NCBI GenBank assembly: GCA_039105265.1
Contig: JAPFFF010000002.1
Coordinates: forward strand, 8,060,001-8,124,000
From: Tritrichomonas musculus
Lineage: Eukaryota > Parabasalia > Tritrichomonadida > Tritrichomonadidae
Reading direction: 5' to 3'
Length of the DNA: 64,000 nt
A model generated the notes under the pieces. The model had not been told where the DNA came from and did no database searches. It worked only from the letters and a program-made list of their open reading frames with translations. Position 1 is the first letter of the stretch; each line of letters opens with the position of its first letter. Of the stretch, positions 3,807 to 26,215 are shown one piece after another. The position numbers and the translations under genes were made by a program.

Positions 3807-4087
3807 AGTAGTTAGGTTAAGGGGGGCTACAGGGACAAGCCCTTTCGCCCCCACTTACCGGTTTTGAAGGTCGTCTGAGACCCTCCTAACAGCCCTCCAG
3901 AGGCCCATTACGAGCATCCCAACGAGTCCCAGATCCGGAACCTCCCGAGAAGCTCAAAATCATGCAAAAAACGACAGTTACGGACCTCTACACGAGTTTC
4001 CCACCCACGGTCATCTCCACTGCTCCAACAGCTTATCGGGAACAATAGGGATTTCGTTATAGAGACATCTTTTTAGCCTCACCTCAA

Positions 4088-4417
4088 ATGAGTACCCGCT
4101 ACTACATTCACCATGACGACTTCAACCTTTCAGCGAGTGTTCAGATGACGGATCAGTACCCGAGTGACATCAAACGAATTTGGTCTACTTGCGGCGGCTC
4201 GCATATGTTCCGTAAACGATTCTACTTCTTCAGCGAAAGCTACGGAAAGGTATATAAGCTCGGAAGTGACCCTATGAGCTATCATGAACGGAATGGTAGT
4301 CATGTGTACTGCTTAGTCGATGACATGAACAAACGCTGTTGCTTCTGCGTCAACGACTACTTGATTAAGTGTACGTCGGATATGCCCAAGATCGAGTTAC
4401 CTAAGAAGTATCGCTAA
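4088..4417 (+). CDS. 109-aa TIR protein, unknown function
   Basis: The ATG at 4088 follows CTTTTTAGCCTCACCTCAA, the T-tract plus short leader seen before other genes of this element. The protein is rich in aromatic residues, His and Cys. A Cys cluster near residues 83-85 (KRCCFCV) with further Cys at about 74 and 93 could bind metal, but I see no standard finger. The gene lies inside the inverted repeat, is repeated at the other end (25605-25934) and in copy 1 (790-1119), and all three proteins are identical. Being the first gene from each end, it may act early or on the termini, for example as an end-binding or host-interaction factor; this is inference from position only. ATTTTTGG follows the stop by about 12 bases. 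Confidence 0.7.
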   Translation: MSTRYYIHHDDFNLSASVQMTDQYPSDIKRIWSTCGGSHMFRKRFYFFSESYGKVYKLGSDPMSYHERNGSHVYCLVDDMNKRCCFCVNDYLIKCTSDMPKIELPKKYR

Positions 4418-4556
4418 ACGATCTTCATTTTTGGTCTCGGAAGTGGAGTTCTTGGCGTGAGTATCGTCCCCGGATTATCACTTACGATACCTCCGACACT
4501 GAAATGCCTCAAACGATTTCTCTATCGATTTTTTATCCCGTAGTCATACACATAAG

Positions 4557-4790
4557 ATGAACGCCTGTGAAGATGTATTCGAAGCTATCGACATCTCTGA
4601 AGTTCATTCAGTCAACGACATCATCGAATTCATCGAAGACTACTTCGGTGATGAGATAGAGCTCGATGTTGAGGTTGAAAACGAATCCGATTTCGACAGA
4701 CTCTTAAACGTAGCCTACGACGACGACATCGGCATGGACAGAAAGATTGAAGTCATCAAGACCATTATCGGATTGGTGTTGGATGACTAA
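4557..4790 (+). CDS. Acidic 77-aa TIR protein, unknown function
   Basis: ATG at 4557, about 20 bases after a T6 tract. The protein is strongly acidic (many Asp/Glu, e.g. FIEDYFGDEIELDVEVE) and helical in appearance, with one Cys at residue 4 and no recognised domain. Acidic small proteins of mobile elements are sometimes DNA mimics or interaction partners, but nothing here proves that. It lies between the 109-aa gene and the polymerase in the left TIR, ends just before the TIR border, and is repeated identically at 25232-25465 and 417-650. The sequence ATTTTTGG follows the stop and is itself the TIR boundary. Confidence 0.68.
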   Translation: MNACEDVFEAIDISEVHSVNDIIEFIEDYFGDEIELDVEVENESDFDRLLNVAYDDDIGMDRKIEVIKTIIGLVLDD

Positions 4791-4909
4791 ATCGGATCTT
4801 CATTTTTGGACTCAGAAGTGGATTGATACCTCCTTCAGGACACCAACAGTCATCAAATCCATCCATATCGAATTTCCGTAGTCCAACATTAATTTTTTAT
4901 TTACCTGAA

Positions 4910-7900
4910 ATGGCCAAGTTATTGAGTAAGCTCTCTAAGTCGGAGATCTTGTCGTTACCTGGTTTCAATCAGTATAGATCTATGACTGTCCGTCAGTTGA
5001 AGCCAATCCTTAAGAAGATGATCCGTGAGCTGGAAATCGACTTCAGAGGTGTTCGCGTCAGGGATTACGTCAACAAGGTAGAGTTGAATCGAAAAGCCGA
5101 CAACGACTTCTTTGAACGCATGACCTCGACGAGAGAACAACGACAGAAAGAACTGGAACAGAAAGTCCAACGCGAACAGTCTCTCAAAGATGATGCCCTA
5201 TTCAATCGTTACTTCGGAGACATCGATACCGGATACACGACATCGAAGACAGAAGAGAGACGTCGTTACGAAGAGAACGTTCACGACAAAGACGCATATC
5301 GAGAAGACATGAGGGAGATGATGTTAGCGGTCAAGAACCATGAATCCTTCGAAGTCGATATCGATGACGGTTCTGAGAAACAGTACGCCTTTGTCAAGGT
5401 CTTGAGACAGATTCGTAAGCAGAAGTCAAGCGAATGGAAACCTCTCGTCTACGGATATGACATGGACGGACACGGCAGAGTCTTCAGCATCAACAAAGAA
5501 TTGGATCTCGAAACCATGATCAGATGTATCCTCGGTGAGATCACAGTAGAAGAATACTACTCCGATTGTGATCCTAATCTCATCGGTTGGGATTACATTC
5601 CAGTCAGGTTCGAAGTGAAGTTCATCAAGATGACCAAGAACGAGAAGACCGGCAAGACTGAGTTCCTCGACGGAGAAGGTCACGTAATAGAATCCGTAGA
5701 TGACTATCGTGACGCTCCAGACGGTGCCTTCTTCCCCTTCATCAATCTCCTCAAAGGGTTGGACTTGACGAGGTATCAGATCTACGACTCCATCGATAAG
5801 AAGAACTACCGTGACAACTGCTTCGTCTATGCTTGCATTCAATCAGGTGTCTTCACGGATGATGAGATTCAGAAGCTCCGTAACGTCATGCTTACACGAT
5901 CAATCCCCAACAAGAAGATCACTGAGATCGCCACCCAGATGAAGTGTCATTTCGTGGTAAGTCGCGTTAACGACAACCGAGAATCACGACATCGTAAACG
6001 AGATTCAGTCGACACGCGCAAGAACGCCAAAGTCGTAGCAGATCGAGTCGTTAGGTTATTGCTCTACAAAGAACACTACATGATCGATGATCATGAGGTA
6101 CTTCCCATCACGAAGTACTATATCGAACACCGAGACGAACTTGACTCTAAGTATCCAATCCCTGAACGATTCATGATCAAGAACAAGCGTGGAGACAAAT
6201 CCGATAAGGGAACAGGTCTCTTGACTGTCTTGGAAACGATGTTTGAATGCAATCTCTTCAGAGAGATCAACCAATGCGAACAAGCTATCCTCAGCACCTG
6301 TGAGTTCGATAACCACTTGAACGACTACGTTGACCTCATCTACGACGAGAAGTTGTGTTGCAAAGCCGAAACGACAGACGCTAAGAATATCACTGATTGG
6401 ACGCACATCTACTACGCCGATTACGAGACTGACGTAACGGGCGACAAACACAAACCCTATCTATGTTGCCTCTGTGATGACAAGAACATATCGCACTTCG
6501 ACGGCGAGAACCTTACGTCCCAATTCTTGAACTCCCTCACGACCAACTCCCTTACGTACTTCCATAACCTGAAATACGATGCGTGCTTCTTCATTAACGA
6601 ACCAGGGTGGGAGGTCCAAGTCACTCAACGATCAGGTACGTTACTCCAAGTCGTTATGGATCGCTATAAGACGATTGAGGTCACCGACCCCAAAACCAAG
6701 ATCTCGAAGCCGAAGAAGATCAGGGAGAAGCATCTAACGTTCCGCAACAGCAAGTCCATCATCCCCGCTCCATTATGTGACTTCGATAGCATGTTCAACC
6801 TCAAGGTACACAAAGAGATCATCGCATACAAGATCTATACCCAAGCGAACATCAAACGTCGATGGATCCCATTTGATGAGTTCTTCGCCCAATACGTCGC
6901 CGAGAACGAAGACCGTAAGAGCACTTCCGTCCTCGAACAAGACCGCGAACAGTTACTCAAGAACGCCAAGTTCGCCAAAGCCTACAACGAATCGGACTCC
7001 AGTATCGACATCATGAAGTATGCCCGGTTCTACTGCATCAAAGACTGCGTCACATTGATGGACGGTATGACGAAGTTCAACAACGACTTGGCCGAAGTGT
7101 TCAAGACGACCGAGAAGCCCTGGATAGGTATCCATCAATTCATCTCCATCTCAGCTGTCGGTTACGACTTCGCCCGTATCTACGGCTGCTTCGAGGGATG
7201 CTTCCAACTGGCTGGTAAACCACAGAACTTTATTCAACGATGTGTCAGTGGTGGACGTACCATGACGGCTGACAACGAGAAGCAGTACGTAGAGGGGCGT
7301 ATCCAAGACTTTGACGCCGTCAGTCTCTATCCATCAGCCATGTCGATTATGGATGGCGTCGCAAAGGGCATTCCTAAGGTGATTCCCGACAACTGCTCTC
7401 ATGAACAACTCATGAGTTACGACACCTTCTTCATCGAGATCAACATCACCAAGCTCTCGTGCAAGTCCAATCGTCCATATAGATTCGGTCAGGTATTCAA
7501 ACATAACGAAGCTGGATCGAAGATCTTCTGTAACGAACCAGTTGATCACTACTACGTAGACAAGATCACGTTAATGGATCTCATCGAATTCTACGACATC
7601 GAATACGAATTCATCCGTGGATACTACTTCGATGATGGATTCAACAACAAGATCAACACCTTCATCCAGACCTTATTCGACCTTCGATCGAAGTACAAGT
7701 CCGAGAAGAATCCACTCGAGAAGACAATCAAGTTGTTGTTGAACTCCATTTATGGCAAGTCGATCCTGAAACCCATGGCCGATGAAGTCAAGGTAGTTGA
7801 TCGTAAGAAGCTCATCTCCTACATCTACCGCAACTACAACTACATCAAAGAAGTATCCTTCACTGACTCATCTAAAGCGTTCGTCAAGAAGATCAAGCCC

Positions 7901-8446
7901 ATCAACAACCACTTCAACCTACCGCAGTTCGGAGCCTCCGTTCTATCCTGGTCTAAGCATATCATGAATCAGGTCATGACCACAGCGGAACAGAACGATA
8001 TCGACATCTACTACCAAGACACCGATAGCATGCATCTCAAAGAGTCCGACGTCTCCAAGCTCTCAGCGATCTACAAAACCAAGTACGGAAGTGAGTTGAT
8101 CGGTAAACAGATGACCCAGTTCCATTGCGACTTCGATGCATTCCCTGGTGCAGTCGGTGACGTACACTCCCGTAAGTTGATCGCTTTGGGGAAGAAGTCC
8201 TACCTCGACATCCTCGTAGATGAAGCCGGCAACGAAGGTTACCACATCCGCTGTAAGGGAGTACCACGTCAGTGTATCCTTAACAAGTGTAAACGACTCG
8301 GAATCACCGTTGAAGAGCTGTATGAACGAATGTATCATGGAGAAGCCGTCACGTTCGATCTCACTGATGGCGCCAACTGTTTCGTGAAGACGAAGACCTT
8401 CGATCAGGTTACTCGACCACAGTTCCTCCGCAAAGTCCAGTTCTAA
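4910..8446 (+). CDS. Protein-primed family B DNA polymerase (Polinton type)
   Basis: Replicates the element, presumably from a protein primer bound at the termini. The ATG at 4910 gives 1,178 aa; the frame is open from 4823, but the 4910 start follows AATTTTTTAT and a short leader like the other genes. Proofreading motifs: Exo I YADYETD (D504, E506), Exo II NLKYD (D557), Exo III YCIKD (Y708, D712). Polymerase motifs: DFDAVSLYPS (D802), KLLLNSIYGK (K941-K950), YYQDTDS (D1037, D1039) and KKSYLDIL downstream. All catalytic residues are present, so it should be active. Residues ~300-400 hold a separate module with NCFVYACIQSG (C304) and KEHYMI (H389), a Cys/His pair spaced as in papain-fold or OTU-like proteases; that reading is inference. 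N-terminus charged and helical. First gene after the TIR. Confidence 0.95.
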   Translation: MAKLLSKLSKSEILSLPGFNQYRSMTVRQLKPILKKMIRELEIDFRGVRVRDYVNKVELNRKADNDFFERMTSTREQRQKELEQKVQREQSLKDDALFNRYFGDIDTGYTTSKTEERRRYEENVHDKDAYREDMREMMLAVKNHESFEVDIDDGSEKQYAFVKVLRQIRKQKSSEWKPLVYGYDMDGHGRVFSINKELDLETMIRCILGEITVEEYYSDCDPNLIGWDYIPVRFEVKFIKMTKNEKTGKTEFLDGEGHVIESVDDYRDAPDGAFFPFINLLKGLDLTRYQIYDSIDKKNYRDNCFVYACIQSGVFTDDEIQKLRNVMLTRSIPNKKITEIATQMKCHFVVSRVNDNRESRHRKRDSVDTRKNAKVVADRVVRLLLYKEHYMIDDHEVLPITKYYIEHRDELDSKYPIPERFMIKNKRGDKSDKGTGLLTVLETMFECNLFREINQCEQAILSTCEFDNHLNDYVDLIYDEKLCCKAETTDAKNITDWTHIYYADYETDVTGDKHKPYLCCLCDDKNISHFDGENLTSQFLNSLTTNSLTYFHNLKYDACFFINEPGWEVQVTQRSGTLLQVVMDRYKTIEVTDPKTKISKPKKIREKHLTFRNSKSIIPAPLCDFDSMFNLKVHKEIIAYKIYTQANIKRRWIPFDEFFAQYVAENEDRKSTSVLEQDREQLLKNAKFAKAYNESDSSIDIMKYARFYCIKDCVTLMDGMTKFNNDLAEVFKTTEKPWIGIHQFISISAVGYDFARIYGCFEGCFQLAGKPQNFIQRCVSGGRTMTADNEKQYVEGRIQDFDAVSLYPSAMSIMDGVAKGIPKVIPDNCSHEQLMSYDTFFIEINITKLSCKSNRPYRFGQVFKHNEAGSKIFCNEPVDHYYVDKITLMDLIEFYDIEYEFIRGYYFDDGFNNKINTFIQTLFDLRSKYKSEKNPLEKTIKLLLNSIYGKSILKPMADEVKVVDRKKLISYIYRNYNYIKEVSFTDSSKAFVKKIKPINNHFNLPQFGASVLSWSKHIMNQVMTTAEQNDIDIYYQDTDSMHLKESDVSKLSAIYKTKYGSELIGKQMTQFHCDFDAFPGAVGDVHSRKLIALGKKSYLDILVDEAGNEGYHIRCKGVPRQCILNKCKRLGITVEELYERMYHGEAVTFDLTDGANCFVKTKTFDQVTRPQFLRKVQF

Positions 8447-8470
8447 ACCAATTCTTTTTGTGCCAACGAA

Positions 8471-8656
8471 ATGGAACCCACCTTCGTAAGCATCCCCGGA
8501 TTCGATGGCAAGTACGAGATCTCTATTACTGAACCTCACCAAGTGATCGACACGACAACAGGTCTCGTTCTCGATGAATGGTACAACGGTTACGGTGAAG
8601 AAGCTGTCTTGTTGGACGGCGAACTCTATCTCATTACCGAATTGCTTCCAAACTAA
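8471..8656 (+). CDS. Small NUMOD4-like protein (61 aa)
   Basis: Starts 24 bases after the polymerase stop with ATG at 8471. IPGFDGKYEIS (residues 8-18) resembles the NUMOD4 motif (I-x-G-[FY]-x-G-x-Y-x-[IV]-S) that normally precedes an HNH nuclease and helps bind DNA. Here it stands alone: no HNH follows in this frame. The HNH gene at 9962 lies 1.3 kb downstream, so the pair could be a split or duplicated homing-nuclease module. Only the motif and the size support this; function is not shown. Confidence 0.5.
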   Translation: MEPTFVSIPGFDGKYEISITEPHQVIDTTTGLVLDEWYNGYGEEAVLLDGELYLITELLPN

Positions 8657-8679
8657 TTCTTTTACGCCACCACAAACAC

Positions 8680-9096
8680 ATGTCCCTCAAGCAGTTCGTC
8701 GAAACAGTTCAACCCAAAGACAGCACCAAACTCTACGTCTACCTCGACAGCAAGATCTACCCAAATGAATTCGGTATCAGCGTTCGTCCATTGCAAGTCA
8801 AATACGGATCCACCGTTCTCGATATGTCCCAGTTGATTGATTTGTTCGGGAAAGTCCCTTACATCACCGTCAGAGAGAGTCGTTATCGAACCGTCTACCG
8901 AGACCCAATGTTGATGACCGTTGACCTGACTCCGAAGCAATTCGAAGATAAGACCTACTACGATTACTACATCGACAAGCTCTGTCTCAGATCTGAGTTG
9001 AAGAGATATGAAGCGATATACACCAAAGCACACGACGTTCTCAGGGGAGTTCATTCCATCAACGACTTCCGTGAACTGGACTCCCAAGACGAGTGA
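8680..9096 (+). CDS. Hypothetical protein, 138 aa
   Basis: ATG at 8680, 23 bases after the upstream stop; the intervening CTAATTCTTTTACGCC is the short T-tract leader used before several genes here. The protein is mixed alpha/beta in look, with many Tyr (TYYDYYIDKLC near residue 95) and a charged C-terminus ending SQDE. No Walker, zinc or nuclease motif and no signal peptide. It sits between the polymerase block and a non-coding island. I do not recognise it. Coding is supported by length, spacing, codon use like the polymerase and the ATTTTTGA shortly after the stop. Confidence 0.65.
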   Translation: MSLKQFVETVQPKDSTKLYVYLDSKIYPNEFGISVRPLQVKYGSTVLDMSQLIDLFGKVPYITVRESRYRTVYRDPMLMTVDLTPKQFEDKTYYDYYIDKLCLRSELKRYEAIYTKAHDVLRGVHSINDFRELDSQDE

Positions 9097-9135
9097 TCTG
9101 ATCTATTTTTGAGCAAAAAGGGAGCAAAAACCGTT

Positions 9136-9698: not shown

Positions 9699-9929
9699 AT
9701 GATTTCACCTTCGAGATTCCTCGAAATGGTACCCAGCTTCCGAGGATCATATCTCGATACTTCGTACCCCGCTATGCGGACGAATACTCAACCGATTGAC
9801 TTCGTTCCTTCACCAATCGATAGCGGTGATCATGGAGCATCATATCGTACACGAAAATGGGTACCGCGGAATTCCGCGGAACGAGAAATCATGATCGAAT
9901 CAGTCGTATCCGAATTCACGTCAAACTAA
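9699..9929 (+). CDS. Possible small protein, 76 aa
   Basis: ATG at 9699 gives 76 residues, rich in Ser, Pro and Arg. The frame stays open further upstream without an ATG. In favour: the stop is followed by CTAATTC like other gene ends of this element, and the next gene starts 33 bases later. Against: no recognisable domain and an unusual location beside the repeats. A perfect 16-bp palindrome (9864-9879) lies inside it. It may be non-coding. Confidence 0.4.
   Translation: MISPSRFLEMVPSFRGSYLDTSYPAMRTNTQPIDFVPSPIDSGDHGASYRTRKWVPRNSAEREIMIESVVSEFTSN
9864..9879. repeat. 16-bp perfect palindrome CCGCGGAATTCCGCGG
   Basis: A perfect inverted repeat without spacer. Its central 12 bp, GCGGAATTCCGC, recurs at 20846-20857 inside a different gene of the element. 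Possible dimeric protein binding site. Confidence 0.6.
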
Positions 9930-9961
9930 TTCTAATCCAACTTTTTATCACGAATTCAAAC

Positions 9962-10555
9962 ATGGCTACAGTAATTGACGAGCAAGCAAGCTGGGAGACC
10001 TTGGTCGCCGATGACGACTACGAGATCTGCGTCGAATATCCATATCCAATTCGTCGAAAGTCTAACGGACACGTCGTTTCTGAATCAATTGGCACTAACG
10101 GCTACCCATGTATCGCTCTTAACGGCAAGAAATATCTAAAGCATCGTGTCATCGCGAAACAATGGGTCGATAACGATGACCCTGAACACATGACTCAGGT
10201 AGATCACCGCAACCGCGATCGAACAGACTATCACTCAACGAATCTACGCTGGGTTACTCCAACCGAGAATCAACTTAACAGAACGGGTCACAAAGGTAAT
10301 GTCAAATACGAATACGTTGACGAGTTGCCTGAAGATGCTATGGTCGTCGACTTCTATGATACGACCAACGGTCATCACGAATTCGAGAACTACTACTTCC
10401 ATGACGACGTGTTTTACTTCTGGACCGGCATCGAGTATCGAATACTACACATCTGTGAGACCAAGTCCGGGAATAAGTATGTCAATACACGCGATGTCGA
10501 CAACAAAGTGGTTGCGATCATGTACTCGAAATTCAAACGCCAACACGATCTCTAA
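9962..10555 (+). CDS. HNH endonuclease (homing-type)
   Basis: Predicted DNA-cutting enzyme of 197 aa from the ATG at 9962 (the frame is open further up, but this ATG follows a T-tract leader). Residues 11-40 have a NUMOD4-like start (W11, DYEI at 19-22). The HNH core is HRVIAKQWV (H61, R62), VDHRNRDRTDYHSTNLRW (D81, H82, N84, N94), matching HNH_3-type nucleases of phages and giant viruses. The C-terminal ~90 residues are unassigned. Such enzymes usually serve self-spread or cut competing DNA. As a free-standing gene inside a Maverick it may aid element spread or act in replication or recombination; that is inference. Confidence 0.85.
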   Translation: MATVIDEQASWETLVADDDYEICVEYPYPIRRKSNGHVVSESIGTNGYPCIALNGKKYLKHRVIAKQWVDNDDPEHMTQVDHRNRDRTDYHSTNLRWVTPTENQLNRTGHKGNVKYEYVDELPEDAMVVDFYDTTNGHHEFENYYFHDDVFYFWTGIEYRILHICETKSGNKYVNTRDVDNKVVAIMYSKFKRQHDL

Positions 10556-10833: not shown

Positions 10834-10836
10834 TCC

Positions 10837-11606: not shown

Positions 11607-14600
11607 ATGATTGCCCCATTAGCCGTGCAAGCGTTGGCCCTGAAGGATCGTGGGTACGAAATCGGTGTCATTGACGATGAACTACGAATCACCCGAGACT
11701 ACAGTCCCGATAACGTTCGCATCAACTGTGTCTACACTAAGAAAGAGATCGATGACATAGTCCAGAACAATAAACCCGAAACGTACTTCGAGCTCAAAGA
11801 ATCCGACCAGCTTTACCTCTACAAGCCATCGTCAATCACTCAGTCAGAGAGGTACTACGAAATGATTTGGGTCATCGATCCCGACTACGACATCCCATTA
11901 CAGTTGGAGTTCGAGTTCAGAGACTACCTTTTCGGACACACCTGGGCTCTCACCTGGGATGGAACATCATGGACCGGGAACAACGTCGTGAATCGCTCAA
12001 TCGCGAAGCTATCGTCTAAGACCAACAACAACGGAAGTCCTGCTATAGTCGTCCCTCACAGCGATTACATCGCGAAGTGGCTTAGGTGTATTGTCGGTGA
12101 TGACCTTCCCAAGAACTACGCCACTGCTCTATCCGACTACGTAACCAATTGGAGGGTGGTGTATAAGGATGGAGCCGTCATCGAACTCACCGACATTAAG
12201 TTGGATTCAGCACCACAGTACGACGGCCTCGACGTTCAACAGTTCGCGGTCAAAGTTAGTAGCGATGTGTCCTCCAAGGACCTCCTCTACGTACTAGCCG
12301 ATATCAACATCAACGGACATGTAACATCGTTGAGGTGGGATCTACATCCGATCAGCCCTATCAACCTCCATTACCTTCACACCTGGAACGACAACCCCGT
12401 CATCGAGTCATTCAACTACATCCGTGAGGTCAAGCATTCAAACAAGTCCATTCCGGAATCATCAAACCAGAAGAACATCCACATCTACATCGAGAAGGAG
12501 TACTTCGAACAGAAGCCTGAGAACGCCAATGAGACGTACAACCCTTTCGACGTCATGATCGTCCAACAGTTCTATGAGGTCAAACCCGATCCACGAAACT
12601 GTACTACCATCACCACTGATAACAACATCTACTCATCGAAGATCATCTGGGCTGATAACATCATGACTATGCGTCGAGATCTGAACGTCGTCGGTGGTAT
12701 CGTTGACGTACTCGCTTATGATTACTCAACGTTGAGAGCCATCATCAATGGGATTCAAGAGCAACTTCGGTTACAAGCCGCGTATAACGAATACACCGAT
12801 TCCATTCGTAAAGGCTTGGCGATCGCTGGTGATATCCTCAACATACTCACCGGAGCTGTTAGTATGGTCAAAGCCCTCTCGACTCTATCCATCACTGGGG
12901 AGAACATGAACATCAACACGTATCGAACCGAAGACTTCACGTTCCCAGGTATGGGTGGCCCCGACGATGATTATCCTGGCGGCAAACCACCTATTAGTGG
13001 CAAGTTCCTCCTCGACATGGACACGAGTGCTGCTGGTCAGGTACTCAAACGATTCATCCCGACACAGACGGAGATCCCTGCTGCGACAGCTTCATTGACC
13101 GCCACAGATCTAGTACTCAACGCATTGAATTCATTGACCCAGATAGGTAATGCAACCACGACCATCATCGCTGGCGGGTTGACCCTCGATCGAGTACCGG
13201 AAATGGTTGAAGGCGTTCGTACCATAATCCAATCGATACATACCATCACCGACTCCGTTCGCGAGTTACGACGTAGATGGAGAGAACATCGAGATAACAC
13301 CATTGTCGATCACACAGTCGAGAACGCCGATTCTTTAGAACTTGGCGATGCCAATGAGATGGAACTGGACGATTTCGAGAGTCCTGTTACTAGACTGACT
13401 CATGAGACCACTACCCATGCCTTCGGAGATCACACACTCGAATCACTATCGGACTACACTGAAGAAGAGCTGCTCGCGATGGATGGAGTTGACTTCCACG
13501 TTCAACAGATCGGAAACGACCTCATTCTCATCACTAGTGTAGCAACCGGTGAAGTGGTTTACATCAGAAGACGCGATCATATGCAATCAATCACAACACC
13601 CGAGCACGCAAGATTCACTAACAGACGCCACATTGATACCACCTCAACATGGAGCTTTGACGGACGTACAGCACTGGAGATAGAGCGCATGCTACCTCTC
13701 GATCGTATCCTATTCGAGAACACTCATGATCAACTCCGTTTCGTCAGGAACAGTGATACAGATACCGGTGTCGATTGGACTGAAGTGAGAGACTCGAATG
13801 GTAGAACCGTTGCGATCATTGATGTAACCATGCTCACTACCACATCCGTCGGGAGTGATGGGATATCGATTCACAGTCATGATTCTTCCGTTAACGTCAA
13901 TTCAGACGGCATTCACGTCGAAGACAACACTCGAGAGCTCATCGCTAATGAATACAACGTAGTAGTCGTCAATCACGAACTCACTCCAACTACTGACGCT
14001 GAGGTTGTCATTCCCGGAACCACTATCACGCTCGGCGATCTCGAACAGATGGATTGGTATCAACGACATAGACTCACCAACGAGAATCCCGCATTAAGGT
14101 TCAATGATCGCGAAGACCACACCGAGGTACTTTACAGCAACAACGTCATCGGCATCATTGATCGAAGAAACCTCAACCAAGTAACCATCAACGATAATCA
14201 AATCACGATCTCCAACCCGGATAACCAACTCACGCTCACCGATCACGATATCCAGTGGATGAGGGATCACGATCAACGATCAACCCTACGCGGATTCATC
14301 TCGAATATCAACAACAGGTTAGAAGAGATCGGCATGGATGTTGAGTGGTTACTGGATCATCCGTCACTGACAGACCGTTACGTCGTGTGTAGAGGTTCCC
14401 GGATACTTGTCCCAATCGTCGACGCCGTGTTGTATATACCCCGAGCGATTCACGGAGCGAACTCTGCTATGCAGATACGTAAGGCTAGTGGATTCTCAGT
14501 CAAGGGCGAGTCAAATATCAGTCTACAACCCCTTATCGATTGGTGCTCGAGCACTGACCCTGACATATCAATTCCAGACGAATCTAACGAAGCAATCTCT

Positions 14601-18117: not shown

Positions 18118-18639
18118 TTAGACGACGACGTACTTCAGACATAAGTGATATACATTGACGAGGTCGTTGAACTCTTTGTTGTAGACTTGTTTGAAGTCGG
18201 TGACTATCTCTCCGGACTCAGTTACGATCTTAATGGCATCGACCTTCTGTATCGGTGATACCTTAGCGACGCAACATCCAGGGTTGTCATCAGTGTAGAT
18301 CTCGACGTTGCCGCCTGTAACCGATTTGATGATTGAGGCGAGGTCTTGGATAGGTACGATGATGGTCCGTTTGCTGACGAGGTTACTGATGAGGGCTTTG
18401 TCTTGATCGAGTAGTATCTTCGCGTAGGTCTCGAGAATGAGTGATCGGACGTCGGTGTTGACAACGGGTTCTTCTGGCGCGATCGGTAGTTCACGGGTGA
18501 TAACGATGTCTTCCTTCCCGTCGTCGCGCTTGTTGATGAAGATGTTGTTATTGATGTTGTTATTCGACTGTGATGCCGATGTCGGTTCAAGGGATACGTT
18601 CGCATTGACTCCAGTGTTGAGGTTCCTCTTCTTAATCAT
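18118..18639 (-). CDS. Hypothetical protein, 173 aa
   Basis: Converges on the fibre-like gene (25-base gap). The N-terminal ~45 residues are Asn/Ser-rich and look disordered (SNNNINNNIF). The remainder is mixed alpha/beta with several Val/Ile strands and a single Cys pair (PGCCVAK). No recognised family. Its start follows CTCATTTTTCTGCCCCAGAA. The stop is followed by a sequence ending ATTTTTGG, the recurrent 3' motif of this element. Lying between the fibre and capsid genes, a structural or assembly role is likely. Confidence 0.6.
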   Translation of the reverse strand: MIKKRNLNTGVNANVSLEPTSASQSNNNINNNIFINKRDDGKEDIVITRELPIAPEEPVVNTDVRSLILETYAKILLDQDKALISNLVSKRTIIVPIQDLASIIKSVTGGNVEIYTDDNPGCCVAKVSPIQKVDAIKIVTESGEIVTDFKQVYNKEFNDLVNVYHLCLKYVVV

Positions 18640-18681: not shown

Positions 18682-18897
18682 TCAATAGGAGTTCACGTCG
18701 TCTTTGAACACCACTAACTGCTTAGCGTTGACGCGTCTCGATGACTGAGAAAGGTTCTCTTTGGTATGTGTCGGTGGATGAACACATTTAGGTTGGGTTA
18801 TAGGAGGATTCGGTGTTGTGTGTTGCTTATGAGACATCACTTGAACTGACCTGCTCGACATTTCAGGGTCGATAAACTCACCTGCTCGTGATGTCAT
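18682..18897 (-). CDS. Small gene overlapping the capsid stop (71 aa)
   Basis: The ATG at 18897-18895 lies inside the last codons of the major capsid gene, giving a 20-base overlap in another frame. The product is rich in Pro, His, Thr and Ser with a basic C-terminal half. Either it is translated separately, or a frameshift at the capsid end would add it as a C-terminal extension. No family recognised. The frame is also open further upstream within the capsid gene, so coding evidence is moderate. Confidence 0.45.
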   Translation of the reverse strand: MTSRAGEFIDPEMSSRSVQVMSHKQHTTPNPPITQPKCVHPPTHTKENLSQSSRRVNAKQLVVFKDDVNSY

Positions 18898-20455
18898 AGC
18901 TGCCGATCTCAACGACGGGTGGCATACCATTAGGCTGTACATGAATGGATATGACGGTGTCTTGAAGCAAGCCCATGATAGGTGGGGTCGTGACGTTGGT
19001 GGTATACCAATTACCACCTATAGGTATATCGCATACGATTTCGTAAGTGATTGGAGTGTTTGATGTCTGTCCCTGTTGGAATGTGTTATCGGTCTCTGTT
19101 GGAAGTCCGATGAAGAAGGATGTCTTATCATGACTGACCCTACCGATGGATGGTCGACAGTCTTCTGTGTTGGTTAGTGACTGAACGACCTCTTTGTTGA
19201 ACCCTGTTTGTTCTCCATTGACGTTCATAGCATTCTGACACAACTCGATGAACATGGGATCTGAACCATTTGTCGCGAATGGGATGGTTGGGACGACTCC
19301 GTAACCGCCGCACCTCAACTGGAAGTTGGTGAACAATGGGTTCTTGAATACGGTGTGATGGTTGGCTGTTAAGGGGAATAGGAAGAAGATGGAGTCGACG
19401 AATCGGGGAGTGATTGTCTGCGTCGTAGATCCGTGTCCGGCACCTATTGTCTTACTCATCGATGTGAATGTCAGAATCTGGGTGGGGAAGATGAGTTCTT
19501 GTTGAGTGTATCGTTGAACGAGTGCTTGATAGATATCTCCGTCAATACCGAAGTTAGGGATAACGCTGTAGCAGTCATGTATCTCGTAATTGCGTCTAAC
19601 GTTGAGGATACGGGCTCCGGCAGCAATGTTGTTACCGCCGTTATCGGTAATCCATATAGTTGATTGCGTACCGATCTGAATGAACTCGTTACTGATTGGG
19701 GCAAGCGTATATACACAATGAACTGGGTCGTGGATCGCATCGTCAGACAGTCCACATGGACAGTATACGAGACCCTGGGTGCCGAACATGATCTTGAGTT
19801 CGAGCTTACCTGCGAACGATGGTAAGTACTTGATGTTGCTGAGGGGCAGGAATCGACGGAGATCGATCTTCAATGGAATAGTGATATTAGGGTAAGCTGT
19901 TTGCGCGTTACGAAGTTCGATGAAGAACCCGCATCGAGCTTGATCGAATTTGTGCTTAAAGATGTCTTTATGACGAACCTTGGAGTAAACGTCACCTCGT
20001 TTAGATGCTTCGTTGGCGCCACATGCAGTTAGGAATGATTCTTCAGGGCCAAAGTTCTGGGTATAGATAGAGATACCGTTCGCTAAGATCTCATACTTCT
20101 CGACAGCATCCATGGCGTCTTTGAACCCAACCCATAGTCCATTAAAGTCATGACCGTTTATGGCGTTTAATGCGGTTGTTGGGGCAATATTTAAGTCGAC
20201 ATCGATCTTCATGTTGGCTTTGATGAAACCGTTATAGATGTCGGCGGTGTTATCACAAGTAGGGCTGATGATGAATGTCGTGAACGAACCTGCATGAATG
20301 GGTGCTGAAGGACTGTATGATGCTTGGGCGTCGATAACGTACTTCTTGTTAGTATCGGACATGGCAATAGCATTATCGACTATATCGAAATAGCTGGCTA
20401 CCTGGGTATTGACCTCAGCTGATGTCTTATGGAAGACTTCGTTGTTGAACGTCAT
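18878..20455 (-). CDS. Major capsid protein, double-jelly-roll type
   Basis: A 525-aa protein starting at 20455 after TTATTTTTCTTTCACCTTAA. Features expected of the Polinton hexon-type capsid protein: size around 500-600 aa, no signal peptide, an N-terminal helical segment followed by two beta-rich halves, and a Gly/Pro/Asn-rich loop style. The stretch VGFKDAMDAVEKYEILANG then IYTQNFGPEESFLT (residues ~105-145) is the part I associate with trichomonad Maverick capsids, from memory only. It lies in one minus-strand block with the ATPase, the integrase and other small structural candidates. Expected to form the trimeric hexon of an icosahedral particle. A structure prediction would settle it. 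Confidence 0.75.
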   Translation of the reverse strand: MTFNNEVFHKTSAEVNTQVASYFDIVDNAIAMSDTNKKYVIDAQASYSPSAPIHAGSFTTFIISPTCDNTADIYNGFIKANMKIDVDLNIAPTTALNAINGHDFNGLWVGFKDAMDAVEKYEILANGISIYTQNFGPEESFLTACGANEASKRGDVYSKVRHKDIFKHKFDQARCGFFIELRNAQTAYPNITIPLKIDLRRFLPLSNIKYLPSFAGKLELKIMFGTQGLVYCPCGLSDDAIHDPVHCVYTLAPISNEFIQIGTQSTIWITDNGGNNIAAGARILNVRRNYEIHDCYSVIPNFGIDGDIYQALVQRYTQQELIFPTQILTFTSMSKTIGAGHGSTTQTITPRFVDSIFFLFPLTANHHTVFKNPLFTNFQLRCGGYGVVPTIPFATNGSDPMFIELCQNAMNVNGEQTGFNKEVVQSLTNTEDCRPSIGRVSHDKTSFFIGLPTETDNTFQQGQTSNTPITYEIVCDIPIGGNWYTTNVTTPPIMGLLQDTVISIHVQPNGMPPVVEIGSYDITSR

Positions 20456-20501: not shown

Positions 20502-21110
20502 TCAACGTCGTATACGAGATCGAAATAGGGGTTGTTCATTGACGGGCTCTAGCGGAGCTAGGTTTGCTTGGCAAACTGGCTCAGGTTGTTCCGGTTCGGG
20601 TTCATTCTCGGGGAACATGTCTGGGACGTATCGACTACGTATACGGGACTTCGATAACTCTTTGTTGACGACGTGCTTGATGTACTGTTTCTGCTCTTTC
20701 TTGAAGCGATCGTTGCGGAGCTCTTCACCGAGGTTACGTAACTGTTCGAGTATCTCGAGATTAATTGTCGAGTCTCGAGGGACTGTGCTTCGCGATCGAG
20801 GTTTTGCTGCGACTGGAGGCTCGTTTTCGGGTGATATCTGGTGGAGCGGAATTCCGCGGGACCCGTTTTCGGGTGATATCTCGACTGTGGGAATTTCCGT
20901 AGTAGCGTTTTCGGGCTCGGATTCATTCTTGGACTCAATTTCGGGTTCATTCTCGAGGGACCCATTTTCGGGCTCACTCTTCTCCCTTAACTTCACGATA
21001 TACTTCCCTTCTTTCTTCGTCGGGAACACTTCGTAATCGGGGTCATCGATACCTTGTATCCATCGCTGGATGATCTGATTTCGTTTCACTCCGCGGACGT
21101 ACTTACTCAT
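20502..21110 (-). CDS. Glu/Pro-rich protein with PEN repeats, 202 aa
   Basis: Residues ~1-45 form a compact basic start (YVRGVKRNQIIQRWI, then DDPDYEVF). Residues ~45-105 are a low-complexity run with repeated Pro-Glu-Asn and Ser-Glu-Pro units. Residues ~118-150 form a charged helix (LEILEQLRNLGEELRNDRFK), and the end is again PEN-rich with an Arg-rich tail. It looks like a flexible scaffold or virion linker protein. A 12-bp palindrome shared with 9864-9879 lies in it. Function unknown; upstream of the capsid gene in the same direction. Confidence 0.6.
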   Translation of the reverse strand: MSKYVRGVKRNQIIQRWIQGIDDPDYEVFPTKKEGKYIVKLREKSEPENGSLENEPEIESKNESEPENATTEIPTVEISPENGSRGIPLHQISPENEPPVAAKPRSRSTVPRDSTINLEILEQLRNLGEELRNDRFKKEQKQYIKHVVNKELSKSRIRSRYVPDMFPENEPEPEQPEPVCQANLAPLEPVNEQPLFRSRIRR

Positions 21111-21144
21111 TTAGTTTGGACAAAAATATCCTCACTGTCAATAC

Positions 21145-21345
21145 TCACCTACGTTTGTTTTTGCGTGGTTTAGACTTCGATTTACGAGTTCTGATATATG
21201 GCACCGTTACGTCGTGAGTGTTGGTATTACTATGGTATTGTACTGAAGTTGATCTCGGTCTAGTGACTTCGTTATACATAGTGCCAGGACCAGATACGAT
21301 AACGGAATTGCTTGAACGATATGCATTAGTGCGGGCTCCACTCAT
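21145..21345 (-). CDS. Small basic protein, 66 aa
   Basis: Ser/Thr/Asn-rich body with a strongly basic tail (RTRKSKSKPRKNKRR). It starts 10 bases after the stop of the following gene at 21356. The size and charge resemble core or DNA-condensing proteins of capsid-forming elements, or carry a nuclear localisation signal. No family recognised; function inferred from charge only. Confidence 0.5.
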   Translation of the reverse strand: MSGARTNAYRSSNSVIVSGPGTMYNEVTRPRSTSVQYHSNTNTHDVTVPYIRTRKSKSKPRKNKRR

Positions 21346-21355
21346 TTATGGGCCG

Positions 21356-21760
21356 TTAAAGACCTCTAAACGGAATCGCCTTAGTCGACTTCTTTCTGGA
21401 ATCTGCTGCCGCTTGTGCTGTCGTCGATCCGCTTGGCTTCAATTCCCCGCGAGCGAACTGCTCACTGATCTTCACGATCTTATCCGTAACGGAACCTTTC
21501 GGCATGTGACTGAAGATGTTGGCACCTGCTGACGTGATAGCCCCTAATGTCGGATTGAATGCAGTCGCGAAAGGAGTGATCGCATGTAACATGGTACCGA
21601 CGGCCTTAGGATTACTCATCGCGTAGTTCTTGGCACCGATAAGCCCTTTCTTGGTAGCACTCCAGACTCTATGAGCGACGTTCTTTGCGCCGATAAGTCC
21701 TTGATGGACATCGTTCTTCAGGCGATTCCAACCGTTAGTGATGAAACTCTTGAACCCCAT
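21356..21760 (-). CDS. Small amphipathic virion-like protein, 134 aa
   Basis: Starts at 21760 after GTATTTTTGTTTCACATAAACC, a clear example of the element's start signal. The N-terminal half has two amphipathic helices each containing GLIGAKN (residues ~22-28 and ~40-46), then a small-residue hydrophobic stretch (TAFNPTLGAITSAGANIF) and a Gly/Ser/Ala-rich basic tail. This layout resembles internal membrane-active or cementing virion proteins such as the pVI-like proteins proposed in other capsid-forming elements; no sequence proof. The second residue is Gly, but the context does not strictly fit myristoylation. Confidence 0.55.
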   Translation of the reverse strand: MGFKSFITNGWNRLKNDVHQGLIGAKNVAHRVWSATKKGLIGAKNYAMSNPKAVGTMLHAITPFATAFNPTLGAITSAGANIFSHMPKGSVTDKIVKISEQFARGELKPSGSTTAQAAADSRKKSTKAIPFRGL

Positions 21761-21789
21761 GGTTTATGTGAAACAAAAATACATCGGGT

Positions 21790-22641
21790 TTACTCTTCGA
21801 AGTGTGCTTCGTTGGCAACGATGTTGATGATGAATCGGTCATGCTGGCCCTTATGGTTAAGGTATTCGGATGTCGTCGACTTGATATCGAGATTGTTTGG
21901 TGTCTGTTGAAGCATCGCTGTGAAGTCTTCTTTACTGAAACCGCTGTAACAGATGATGTCTGTGGCTAACCTCTTAACGTTGAGATGAACGAAGCGGAGC
22001 GTCTGAACAGCTATGATGCAGGTTAGGTTGAAGTGTCTCGTCTTGGTGAGTAGTCGACAGAGTTCGCTGTTACCGTTCTTGAGTAACGGAGATCCAGCAG
22101 CGTCATCGAGAACGAGCAACGTATTGTAAGGGTACGAAGCGGTCTGGTACTGAACGAGCTTACTCGCTATATAGGCGATTCTGTCTTCGATCTCGTTTAA
22201 CGAATGCTTGGAGATGATTCTCGCCATCTCTTCATTCGCTTCGACCATCTTAGATAGGACGTGCTTCACCATTGCATAGTATTTGAGTTTCCGTCTGAGA
22301 TGTCGTTTGAGGTATGGGAGAAGGTCGTCTTCTTTGACGTACTCGATAGGGGTCTTCACGTTCTTGGATAACACTTCAGCGGTCTTATCGAGCTTCCCTG
22401 ACGTCGAGCAGAAGATGATCTTACTGTAATACGGTTTCTTGAATAGACGTTCCGTTATCATGATGTGACGCCATATCCAGAACGATTTACCTGCTCCCAT
22501 CTTGCCGATAAGGAAGTAGATACCGTTTGTCGAAAATGGGTATTCAGGAGCGAGGGGTTTAATGAGGGCCATCTCGATGTCCCGTTGGTTCTTCCGTAAC
22601 GAATCTTCGATAAGCTCTTCAACCTTCTTGATCTCACTCAT
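21790..22641 (-). CDS. Genome-packaging ATPase (FtsK/HerA, A32-like)
   Basis: A 283-aa P-loop ATPase. Walker A is GKMGAGKS (residues 46-53), Walker B LLVLDD (175-180), and a sensor-like TCIIAVQT (207-214, with Q213) follows in the right place. Order and size fit the A32-like packaging ATPases of Polintons and related viruses, which pump DNA into preformed capsids. Start at 22641: the ATG is preceded by TTAACGTCTCGTAA, nearly the same as before the integrase. It lies 10 bases after the integrase stop. Confidence 0.9.
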   Translation of the reverse strand: MSEIKKVEELIEDSLRKNQRDIEMALIKPLAPEYPFSTNGIYFLIGKMGAGKSFWIWRHIMITERLFKKPYYSKIIFCSTSGKLDKTAEVLSKNVKTPIEYVKEDDLLPYLKRHLRRKLKYYAMVKHVLSKMVEANEEMARIISKHSLNEIEDRIAYIASKLVQYQTASYPYNTLLVLDDAAGSPLLKNGNSELCRLLTKTRHFNLTCIIAVQTLRFVHLNVKRLATDIICYSGFSKEDFTAMLQQTPNNLDIKSTTSEYLNHKGQHDRFIINIVANEAHFEE

Positions 22642-22651
22642 TTACGAGACG

Positions 22652-23725
22652 TTAAATGAACTTCCTTATCTGATCGGGAATCCGTTTTCGGTTAACCCAG
22701 TACTGACGCTCCATAGTCGATAATTTCGTTGGATGACCTTCCCGCATGTTCTTCGCTTTGATGGTATCTGCCACGTCGGAATCCTCGTACGTAATCGTGT
22801 AGGTGTCTCGTTTCTGATTATACGATCGAATCTCCTTAACGATACCGCGTTTGCCGTTCTTAATGGTCGTCGCTAACGGAACGTTCTTAGCAGCCTTCAC
22901 GAGCCTATATCCCGGTAGAGTATCCACGGAACCATCGCTAGAACGGATCACGAATTGGTTGCCGCCTTTGGAGTCGACGATGTAGGACTGCTTAGATAGA
23001 TTGGAACGGTGCTTCGTTAACGGACTCTTATCGAGAACTACTCTGACGAAGTCGCCAGGTTCGAACTTGTATGGACTCTCCTGATGACTCATCTTATCGA
23101 TATACTCCAACTCATCTTCTTCGGTAATGTCGTTAGGGGACTTGTAATCGAGAGATCGGTGAGGCATGTCGTTATAGGACTCCACTAAGGATAGCGCATC
23201 AGCGGAAGGTTCGTTAGCTTTCATGTCACGAATGGTCCTCATGAATCGATTGATGATACCGAGTTTGTTATGGTCATTATCCGTTGTGGTTGTATAGACG
23301 ATGTCGTGTTCTCTCATGAAGTCGAGGACGGATTTCGATAAATAGGCCGTATCTTCATCGGATTCAATGGACTTACATTCGGGTTCTACCTTAATGAACT
23401 CGTTTAACGATCTCAGCACTTCCCTGGCTCCCTTACCGTTCATCTCATACGCGTAAGCCTTTCGGGTATTGATGTTGATGAGCATCAAGTAATTGGGGTT
23501 GTCAATGAATGTATCCATCTGGAAGCCATGCCGGATCTTCGAATAGATGTGCATGAATTTGGTCGCTGGAACGTGCTGATCGTGAACGACTCTGTTACTC
23601 AGAAACTCCTTAGCTTCATCATCAGTAAAGCCATACCTATTAGCGATTCTCTTGAACTTGGATATCGTATTGGTCGGGTACTTGGCATACACTTCATCAA
23701 TGGTCTTGAACTTGATGCGGCTCAT
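22652..23725 (-). CDS. Retroviral-type (rve) integrase
   Basis: A 357-aa integrase of the Maverick c-integrase type. The RNase H-like core runs about residues 60-170: first Asp in FQMDTF (D71), second in ESDEDTAYL (D123), and the third position, 35 residues on, is in HNKLGIINRFMRT, where N159 occupies the place of the usual Glu. The C-terminal half (~215-357) has a beta-barrel/chromodomain-like segment starting YKFEPGDFVRVVLD and a basic tail. The N-terminus lacks an obvious HHCC zinc finger. It would insert the element and make the 5-bp duplication. Start ATG at 23725 is preceded by TTAATCCATCGTAA; 10 bases separate its stop from the ATPase ATG. Confidence 0.88.
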   Translation of the reverse strand: MSRIKFKTIDEVYAKYPTNTISKFKRIANRYGFTDDEAKEFLSNRVVHDQHVPATKFMHIYSKIRHGFQMDTFIDNPNYLMLININTRKAYAYEMNGKGAREVLRSLNEFIKVEPECKSIESDEDTAYLSKSVLDFMREHDIVYTTTTDNDHNKLGIINRFMRTIRDMKANEPSADALSLVESYNDMPHRSLDYKSPNDITEEDELEYIDKMSHQESPYKFEPGDFVRVVLDKSPLTKHRSNLSKQSYIVDSKGGNQFVIRSSDGSVDTLPGYRLVKAAKNVPLATTIKNGKRGIVKEIRSYNQKRDTYTITYEDSDVADTIKAKNMREGHPTKLSTMERQYWVNRKRIPDQIRKFI

Positions 23726-23735
23726 TTACGATGGA

Positions 23736-25166
23736 TTAAGAGTACAGTAGCTTCCGGTTCTGCAGGAACACAACATCCATTGTCAGGACCACATCATTGT
23801 TGAAGTTGATCGGGATATTGATATCATCGTTGTCGTAACACTCTATCCAGAACGAATTACCGTTATCGTTGATCTTGTAGTACTTGATGTTCTCGAAAGT
23901 CTCGTTAGTACATCCGATGATGTTATGGTTCGATTGACTTGCGAATGAGGCAGCTATTCGACAATCCAAATCGGTTCTGATGTTGCAGAAGCGCAGATTC
24001 CGATGGTACACGTTGGTGTATCCGACATGGTTTTGATTCGGATTGGGGCCGATGTTCAGGAAGTTTCGTGTATCGGAGCCGTGAATGAAGCGTCCTTCGT
24101 CGAAGTCTACTTCATGGGTATTACGCAGATACGGATATATGGAGCTGCGCATCTCAGGCTCGGGTGTCGAATAAACCTTTGTGTAGGAGGAATCGTTGAT
24201 TGGAGTGATCAAGTAATCGCAATAGTAATCGTTATTGATCAGTATGTTATCGGGCTGCTCGATTATGAGTTGTTTCATATGCTTGGAATCGTTGTTGACT
24301 ATGATGTCGTCACTCGTAACGAAGAACGGAATCGGGTTTTCGAGAAACTCATCACTGCGCAGTATCATCAAGTCGTAATCGTCGCGAATGGAATTCAATT
24401 CAGTCAGCTTTATCACCACTTCGTCATCGTTAGCCTTGATCACCTTAGAACGGATATACTCATATAGGCTAGCATTAGAGATACATCCCATGAACTTGTC
24501 AGAGATGTCTTCCCATGAGTCGTCTTCGTCAATCGTGATCTGAATAGGGATTCGAAACACGCCGACGTCTTCGGCTTTCATTTTCGATAACTGGATCTCG
24601 GCACGTTCTTCAAGTGAGCTGTTGTTGTTTGTTTGATTATCGATACGCCTACGTTCCTCACTAGAGAACGAGTATGACAGGAATTGGTACACTTGAGCGT
24701 AATTCAGGGTCGAAATCATGATGTCAAATCGTTGGGATTTGTCCAGATAATAGTAGGTTTTACTGTACTTCGCTCGAGAAGCCTCGTTGATGATCTGGTG
24801 TAGTTCTTTGTTCTCTTTCTTCTCGATAAACCACCAGAAATCATCAGGAAGATCGTCTGCTATTTCATCCATCAACCGAAGCGCGTATTCGGATCTTCCG
24901 TGATCCTTATTGTCTTCGAACTCATCCTTCTTGTACTTCCTGACGTATAGAAAGAATCGAACTGTCCTGCTTTTGCGTTTGAGATGGATGGCTCTGATAC
25001 CGATGATCTTCTCGTCTACGTTAGAGGTATGCCATTCAGGTGGATACTGAAAATGGATCCTGTTAGGGTAGACTTCATCTACGACTCCATCTATTGACGA
25101 GTTATACGTCGTTTCAAGCGGTAAATGGGTCTGTTCATTCACTTGGATATCTCTGCGGTAACTCAT
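23736..25166 (-). CDS. Probable structural protein, 476 aa
   Basis: First gene inside the right TIR on this strand; its stop is 10 bases before the integrase ATG. The N-terminal ~110 residues contain basic strands (IHLKRKSRTVRFFLYVRKYK), the middle is charged and helical, and the C-terminal ~120 residues are beta-rich, finishing with SFWIECYDNDDINIPINF and hydrophobic strands. That ending is like jelly-roll virion proteins, so it is a second candidate for a minor capsid or vertex protein. No enzymatic motif seen. The family is not recognised with confidence. Confidence 0.6.
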   Translation of the reverse strand: MSYRRDIQVNEQTHLPLETTYNSSIDGVVDEVYPNRIHFQYPPEWHTSNVDEKIIGIRAIHLKRKSRTVRFFLYVRKYKKDEFEDNKDHGRSEYALRLMDEIADDLPDDFWWFIEKKENKELHQIINEASRAKYSKTYYYLDKSQRFDIMISTLNYAQVYQFLSYSFSSEERRRIDNQTNNNSSLEERAEIQLSKMKAEDVGVFRIPIQITIDEDDSWEDISDKFMGCISNASLYEYIRSKVIKANDDEVVIKLTELNSIRDDYDLMILRSDEFLENPIPFFVTSDDIIVNNDSKHMKQLIIEQPDNILINNDYYCDYLITPINDSSYTKVYSTPEPEMRSSIYPYLRNTHEVDFDEGRFIHGSDTRNFLNIGPNPNQNHVGYTNVYHRNLRFCNIRTDLDCRIAASFASQSNHNIIGCTNETFENIKYYKINDNGNSFWIECYDNDDINIPINFNNDVVLTMDVVFLQNRKLLYS

Positions 25167-25231
25167 TTAGGAGAAGCAAAACAGTGGACTTCGATAATCC
25201 CGGGGACGGACACCAAAAATGAAGATCCGAT

Positions 25232-25465
25232 TTAGTCATCCAACACCAATCCGATAATGGTCTTGATGACTTCAATCTTTCTGTCCATGCCGATGTCGTC
25301 GTCGTAGGCTACGTTTAAGAGTCTGTCGAAATCGGATTCGTTTTCAACCTCAACATCGAGCTCTATCTCATCACCGAAGTAGTCTTCGATGAATTCGATG
25401 ATGTCGTTGACTGAATGAACTTCAGAGATGTCGATAGCTTCGAATACATCTTCACAGGCGTTCAT
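25232..25465 (-). CDS. Acidic 77-aa TIR protein (right copy)
   Basis: Identical to the protein at 4557-4790. Lies at the inner border of the right TIR, with its stop 19 bases inside the boundary. Confidence 0.68.
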   Translation of the reverse strand: MNACEDVFEAIDISEVHSVNDIIEFIEDYFGDEIELDVEVENESDFDRLLNVAYDDDIGMDRKIEVIKTIIGLVLDD

Positions 25466-25604
25466 CTTATGTGTATGACTACGGGATAAAAAATCGATAG
25501 AGAAATCGTTTGAGGCATTTCAGTGTCGGAGGTATCGTAAGTGATAATCCGGGGACGATACTCACGCCAAGAACTCCACTTCCGAGACCAAAAATGAAGA
25601 TCGT

Positions 25605-25934
25605 TTAGCGATACTTCTTAGGTAACTCGATCTTGGGCATATCCGACGTACACTTAATCAAGTAGTCGTTGACGCAGAAGCAACAGCGTTTGTTCATGTC
25701 ATCGACTAAGCAGTACACATGACTACCATTCCGTTCATGATAGCTCATAGGGTCACTTCCGAGCTTATATACCTTTCCGTAGCTTTCGCTGAAGAAGTAG
25801 AATCGTTTACGGAACATATGCGAGCCGCCGCAAGTAGACCAAATTCGTTTGATGTCACTCGGGTACTGATCCGTCATCTGAACACTCGCTGAAAGGTTGA
25901 AGTCGTCATGGTGAATGTAGTAGCGGGTACTCAT
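25605..25934 (-). CDS. 109-aa TIR protein (right copy)
   Basis: Identical to 4088-4417. Outermost gene of the right end, transcribed inward. Two identical copies per element allow gene conversion between the ends and double dosage. Confidence 0.7.
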   Translation of the reverse strand: MSTRYYIHHDDFNLSASVQMTDQYPSDIKRIWSTCGGSHMFRKRFYFFSESYGKVYKLGSDPMSYHERNGSHVYCLVDDMNKRCCFCVNDYLIKCTSDMPKIELPKKYR

Positions 25935-26215
25935 TTGAGGTGAGGCTAAAAAGATGTCTCTATAACGAAATCCCTATTGTTCCCGATAAGCTGTTGGAGC
26001 AGTGGAGATGACCGTGGGTGGGAAACTCGTGTAGAGGTCCGTAACTGTCGTTTTTTGCATGATTTTGAGCTTCTCGGGAGGTTCCGGATCTGGGACTCGT
26101 TGGGATGCTCGTAATGGGCCTCTGGAGGGCTGTTAGGAGGGTCTCAGACGACCTTCAAAACCGGTAAGTGGGGGCGAAAGGGCTTGTCCCTGTAGCCCCC
26201 CTTAACCTAACTACT

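What the first reader, a model, noticed from the sequence alone, without database searches (positions are those of the whole stretch)
3807..26215. Intact, probably recently mobile 22-kb Maverick with perfect 5-bp target duplication
Ends, 1,003-bp TIRs and the GATAC duplication are all perfect by eye and the hallmark genes are open. That gives a complete virus-like transposon with polymerase, integrase, ATPase and capsid genes in a parabasalid genome, sitting between a dead gene and a dead hAT transposase.
Basis: partly seen in the sequence, partly recalled or inferred. Interest (0 to 1): 0.8.

Follow-up and report, generated by a model that had tools for sequence, protein, structure and literature searches.

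The report
Recently mobile Maverick with unusual integrase
A complete 22-kb virus-like jumping element sits in the genome of the mouse-gut protist Tritrichomonas musculus beside a near-identical twin, and the enzyme that likely inserts it has, like nearly all of its relatives compared, an asparagine where the solved retroviral and retrotransposon integrases it was aligned to have a catalytic glutamate.

Summary
Host: Tritrichomonas musculus. Related empty sites exist: host repeats at six other places run through a single GATAC. All 11 copies with both ends read have perfect 5-bp duplications. A twin in opposite orientation 2.4 kb away has its own duplication (GACGT) and differs by 7 mismatches in 22.4 kb; a third copy by 51. 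Polymerase, integrase, ATPase and capsid frames are open; the capsid's predicted fold is a double jelly-roll. So: a recently mobile Maverick/Polinton, a known kind. Less expected is the integrase: D71, D123, then Asn159 opposite the catalytic Glu of solved integrases. Asn is there in 173 of 174 aligned proteins, Lys in one; the gene is under purifying selection (dN/dS 0.06-0.28). Two other integrase-like families in the genome keep Glu, read by eye. Activity is untested; a matching change in SETMAR, with two other mutations, abolishes transposition. The "dead gene" on the left is a relic of another PolB-bearing element.

The parts
3802..3806 (.). left copy of the 5-bp target site duplication (GATAC)
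   Evidence: single copy in related empty sites
3807..4809 (+). left terminal inverted repeat, 1,003 bp
4910..8446 (+). family-B DNA polymerase (PF03175), 1178 aa; motifs DAVSLYPS, NSIYGKS, YQDTDS present (by eye)
8680..9096 (+). 138-aa open frame, function unknown
9857..10555 (+). HNH endonuclease-like protein (PF13392), 232 aa
10837..11619 (-). 260-aa conserved protein, function unknown; 147 matches in the genome, 147 of 746 first-look candidates having been scored
11607..18092 (+). 2161-aa protein, possibly fibre or spike-like: internally duplicated (residues 58-434 resemble about 1190-1610, 28% identity) with repeats near the C-terminus
   Evidence: no Pfam match at E 0.1
18118..18639 (-). 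173-aa open frame, function unknown
18878..20455 (-). major capsid protein, 525 aa, predicted double jelly-roll fold
20502..21110 (-). 202-aa open frame, function unknown
21145..21345 (-). 66-aa basic open frame, function unknown; not scanned against families
21356..21760 (-). 134-aa open frame, function unknown
21790..22641 (-). A32-like packaging ATPase (PF04665), 283 aa
22652..23725 (-). retroviral-type integrase, 357 aa, D71-D123-N159
23736..25166 (-). 476-aa open frame, function unknown
25213..26215 (-). right terminal inverted repeat, 1,003 bp
26216..26220 (.). right copy of the 5-bp target site duplication (GATAC)
1..1401 (-). end of a second, near-identical Maverick (contig 2, 8038997-8061401), opposite orientation, with its own GACGT duplication
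3617..3806 (-). host-side target: relic of another PolB-bearing repeat, continuing on the far side at about 26216-26253
26257..28023 (+). broken hAT transposase fragments

Best explanation
This is a complete Maverick/Polinton of Tritrichomonas musculus with 1,003-bp identical inverted repeats, a 5-bp target duplication and related empty sites, and it was likely copied by its own DNA polymerase and inserted by its own integrase, whose third catalytic position is asparagine. Shown: ends, duplication, related empty sites, open genes, a twin and a third copy at other sites with other duplications, the Asn in 173 of 174 aligned proteins, and purifying selection on the integrase. Predicted: the capsid and integrase folds. 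Inferred: the polymerase replicates a linear copy primed at the inverted repeats; the integrase joins the copy's ends to staggered cuts 5 bp apart, and repair makes the duplication; two separate insertions then gave the inverted pair. The integrase is inferred to be active with a D-D-N site, possibly helped by a near-invariant acid (Asp125, two residues after Asp123). The capsid and ATPase would allow particles, but nothing here shows that particles form.
Against: SETMAR, whose triad changed from DDD to DDN along with two other mutations, has lost transposition and shows some activity only with Mn2+ and DMSO (PMC6715855, passages), so a D-D-N enzyme might not be the strand-transferase; another paper states that SETMAR does function with its DDN triad (PMC8230255, passage). 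Published mean PacBio read length is 8.9 kb, shorter than the element, so the interiors of the two neighbours may be partly averaged by assembly; this weakens the 7-mismatch figure, less so the distinct duplications. No maturation protease was recognised. Eight of 115 integrase matches in the genome carry stops, and one of 174 aligned proteins has Lys at the third position. No expression, read or particle data.
Confidence: 0.85

Rival explanations
1. The element is a Maverick, but its D-D-N integrase is catalytically weak or dead as a strand-transferase; it binds ends or targets, and another enzyme in the cell does the joining.
For: SETMAR with a DDN triad has lost transposition. The genome holds two other integrase-like families that keep Glu, by eye.
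Against: Purifying selection on the integrase, both Asp invariant wherever the column is filled, and 5-bp duplications at 11 of 11 copies, a stagger typical of this enzyme family (general knowledge).
Confidence: 0.2
2. The inverted pair is an assembly artefact: one Maverick placed twice because reads are shorter than the element.
For: Mean PacBio read 8.9 kb, scaffolding with nanopore reads over 10 kb; long identical stretches between the twins.
Against: Different duplications (GACGT and GATAC) and different flanks at the ends; the twin's two inverted repeats share a one-base insertion that the window copy lacks.
Confidence: 0.08
3. The pair arose by one insertion followed by an inverted segmental duplication.
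For: Near-identity and opposite orientation.
Against: Each copy has its own perfect duplication, and the inverted match listed stops at the element ends.
Confidence: 0.03
4. It is an endogenous virus that spreads between cells as particles, not only a transposon within one genome.
For: Predicted double jelly-roll capsid, A32-like ATPase, 319 capsid homologues in public data, GC far from the host's.
Against: Three pattern-based scans of viral contigs with integrase, capsid or polymerase queries confirmed no relative; no protease recognised; the homologues may be copies inside protist genomes.
Confidence: 0.35

Closest known systems
Maverick/Polinton elements of Trichomonas vaginalis
   Same: Giant inverted-repeat elements with PolB and c-integrase genes, in thousands of copies, with nested and fused copies reported (PMC7845603, passages); capsid genes found later (PMC10120064, passages).
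   Different: Gene set differs: T. vaginalis Mavericks are annotated with KilA-N, primase and RAD50-like genes; Pfam found none of these in the 12 frames scanned here. The third catalytic residue in T. vaginalis was not compared.
Polintoviruses (Krupovic et al. 2014, PMC4028283, passages)
   Same: PolB, integrase, packaging ATPase, predicted double jelly-roll capsid.
   Different: Adenovirus-like protease and penton not identified here.
Retroviral integrases (PFV, HIV-1, MMTV)
   Same: Predicted RNase-H-like catalytic domain; spacing D-(51)-D-(35)-third residue, the same as HIV-1 D64/D116/E152 (recalled numbers).
   Different: Asn in place of the catalytic Glu; Asp at the position two after the second Asp, where the PDB alignments show Ala and Gly.
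SETMAR (domesticated mariner transposase)
   Same: A natural D-D-N triad (PMC6715855, passages); RNase-H-like fold recalled.
   Different: SETMAR is a single domesticated protein that lost transposition; here the Asn is nearly fixed in a family with near-identical recent copies.
IS1595-family transposases (DDNK in some groups)
   Same: Asn at the third position (recalled only; a paper search for 'DDNK' with 'transposase' found nothing).
   Different: Bacterial insertion sequences, not Mavericks (recalled).

Membership tests
Maverick/Polinton | Long terminal inverted repeats with AG...CT ends | tested here: met
   1,003 bp, 100% identical, AGTAGT...ACTACT; AG...CT rule recalled
Maverick/Polinton | 5-6 bp target site duplication | tested here: met
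   GATAC; 5 bp in 11 of 11 copies with both ends read; 5-6 bp rule recalled
Maverick/Polinton | Family-B DNA polymerase of the organellar/viral (protein-primed) type | tested here: met
   PF03175 E 1.1e-26, over cut-off; protein priming itself not testable
Maverick/Polinton | Retroviral-type (rve) integrase | tested here: met
   PF00665 match in the window protein is weak and below the cut-off, but PF00665 is listed for many relatives, and a PDB profile match and the predicted fold agree
Maverick/Polinton | A32/FtsK-like packaging ATPase | tested here: met
   PF04665 over cut-off
Polintovirus (virus-like Polinton) | Double jelly-roll major capsid protein | tested here: met
Polintovirus (virus-like Polinton) | Single jelly-roll penton protein | not tested
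   No fold was made for the remaining open frames; Pfam named none
Polintovirus (virus-like Polinton) | Adenovirus-like cysteine protease | tested here: inconclusive
   No such Pfam match at E 0.1 in the 12 element frames scanned; distant relatives could be missed
DDE integrase/transposase | Asp, Asp, Glu/Asp catalytic triad | tested here: not met
   Third position is Asn in 173 of 174, Lys in 1. The fold family is met; the strict D-D-E/D triad is not

The most novel reading that the evidence does not exclude
A whole lineage of virus-like giant transposons has run for a long evolutionary time on an integrase whose catalytic triad is Asp-Asp-Asn, with the missing carboxylate replaced by a near-invariant Asp two residues after the second catalytic Asp (at the position of HIV-1 Gly118): an active retroviral-type integrase that breaks the D-D-E/D rule.
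Probability: 0.45. Interest if true: 0.75.

Novelty: new variant of a known kind. Interest (0 to 1): 0.5.

Why it matters
Mavericks are central to ideas on how DNA viruses and transposons turn into each other, and trichomonad genomes hold very many of them. Here is a site-resolved example with near-identical copies in T. musculus, whose genome paper (main text held) contains neither Maverick nor any word beginning with transpos. If the D-D-N integrase is active, it shows that the third carboxylate, treated as a defining residue of this enzyme family, can be moved or dispensed with; that is directly testable with a purified protein. If it is inactive, some other enzyme moves a large repeat family in these protists, which would be equally unexpected.

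Tried and rejected
Inverted pair as a segmental duplication: rejected because each twin has its own duplication. Left flank as a cellular gene: rejected; related copies carry PolB motifs, PF03175 and a neighbouring KilA-N gene. Perfect inverted repeats as a clock: rejected; over the terminal 290 bp the two repeats of a copy are 99.3-100% identical in 9 of 10 copies and 86.5% in one (contig 43), while different copies are 74-100% identical, so the two ends are likely evened out at copying. Glu at a neighbouring position by misalignment: not supported; the PDB profile alignments put Asn on Glu, and no column between residues 124 and 204 is a conserved Glu.

Led nowhere: pattern-based scans of viral contigs with integrase, capsid and polymerase queries (no relative confirmed); degenerate motif scans of viral contigs for Glu-type and Asn-type integrases (none; one hit, L102, with no integrase frame by eye); NCBIfam on 6 and PHROGs on 8 frames (nothing convincing); paper searches for Maverick + integrase + asparagine + catalytic (none), DDNK + transposase (none), DDN + integrase + transposase + catalytic triad (two papers, on THAP9 and SETMAR). 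I found no Trichomonas vaginalis, animal Polinton or mavirus integrase to compare, so how far the Asn extends beyond this lineage is open. first read 17 minus-strand loci in the wrong direction; one search repeated it with the strand set right.
Full report
What was claimed and what is there. The left end reads GATAC|AGTAGTTAGGTTAAGGGGGG and the right end CCCCCCTTAACCTAACTACT|GATAC. A script comparison gives inverted repeats identical over exactly 1,003 bp, 0 mismatches. GC inside is 44-49%; it is 29% at 2001-4000 and 20-34% in the 2-kb blocks from 26001 on; the block 1-2000 (39%) is largely the second Maverick.

Host. The window is contig 2, 8060001-8124000, of a 193.4-Mb, 746-contig assembly. 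Proteins named Tritrichomonas musculus come from contigs of 2,441,136 and 8,390,746 bases, exactly the lengths of contigs 22 and 4 of this assembly. The published T. musculus genome is 193.49 Mb in 756 contigs; I saw its abstract and passages (PMC11978803). In the main text held, 'maverick' and words beginning 'transpos' do not occur.

Empty site. The left 500 bp of flank has 42 matches in the genome, the right 500 bp has 6. One place on contig 3 carries both, overlapping by exactly the five bases of the duplication. I joined the two host flanks with a single GATAC and compared them with 12 fetched loci: 10 of 12 align straight through the join, from six distinct places (on contigs 3, 4, 22, 32, 199 and 576); L038 and L039 match only the hAT side. 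One search shows the single GATAC at these places. These are related repeats, not an allele of this very site.

What the target was. In the repeat copies a reading frame of up to 577 aa crosses the site on the other strand. It has PolB motifs and matches PF03175 (E 5.4e-6); the next gene matches KilA-N (E 4.2e-23). KilA-N genes are annotated in T. vaginalis Mavericks (PMC7845603, passages), so the target is likely a relic of another Maverick-like lineage. By tblastn its last part lies at window 3617-3821, the 15 bases beyond 3806 being chance continuation into the element. A broken hAT transposase follows on the right.

Other copies and age. The terminal 200 bp has 31 matches, some partial. 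All 11 copies where I could read both ends have perfect 5-bp duplications: the window, nine, and contig 37 by eye. Single ends without a partner were left out. Pairing of the ends 65 kb apart on contig 49 and 34 kb apart on contig 32 rests on shared duplication and repeat type. The left neighbour (8038997-8061401) lies in opposite orientation 2.4 kb away and differs from the window copy by 7 mismatches and 8 gap positions; the contig-10 copy by 51 mismatches plus gaps. Because 9 of 10 copies tested have repeat ends at least 99.3% identical to each other (contig 43 only 86.5%), the perfect repeats alone do not prove youth; the near-identical copies at other sites do. The integrase search gave 115 matches after scoring 114 of 1,484 first-look candidates, a lower bound; 8 of the 115 carry stops.

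Is it functional? Among 19 equal-length copies, 17 differ from the window gene: dN/dS is 0.13-0.28 for six close ones and 0.06-0.07 for eleven with dS 1.4-1.7, which is near saturation. A dead gene would not keep Asn under such constraint. Against this, SETMAR, with DDD changed to DDN and two other mutations, has lost transposition, with some activity only with Mn2+ and DMSO (PMC6715855, passages); another paper states that SETMAR functions with its DDN triad (PMC8230255, passage). Asp125 (171 Asp, 1 Glu and 2 gaps of 174) is a candidate substitute: the PDB sequences aligned have Ala or Gly there. That it replaces the Glu is inference.

Verdict. An ordinary kind of element, confirmed in unusual detail, with one unexpected and testable property in its integrase.

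Noticed in passing
window 1-1401 (contig 2, 8038997-8061401): A second, near-identical Maverick in opposite orientation 2.4 kb to the left, with its own GACGT duplication and a one-base insertion shared by both of its inverted repeats.
   Followed up: yes
window 3617-3806 and about 26216-26253; L034: The insertion target is a relic of an AT-rich, multi-copy element with PolB and KilA-N genes, distinct from this Maverick.
   Followed up: partly
G000 contig 49, 829237-894403: Two matching Maverick ends 65 kb apart share the same duplication (ACAAC) and nearly identical repeats, probably one element split by later insertions.
   Followed up: no
G000 contig 43, 54931-77256: A full-length copy with matching ACTCT duplications but inverted repeats only 86.5% identical over 290 bp, possibly a recombinant between subfamilies.
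   Followed up: no
L077, L079, L084, L089 (printed); other loci with the same 440-aa frame length not read: A multi-copy 440-aa integrase-like protein that keeps Glu at the third position by eye, possibly of the IS481EU kind (name taken from a paper title).
   Followed up: no
window 17420-17619 and the 2161-aa frame 11607-18092: Two 86-bp repeats (90% identical) near the C-terminus and a large internal duplication, suggestive of a fibre or spike that changes by repeat number.
   Followed up: partly
window 29833-62819: A run of kinase, ankyrin-kinase, calponin-homology and EF-hand genes right of the element.
   Followed up: no
G000 contigs 22 and 49 (3.6 of 193 Mb): Five of the 13 closest integrase copies (95% identity or more) lie on these two contigs, which suggests local clustering; not tested against chance.
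   Followed up: no
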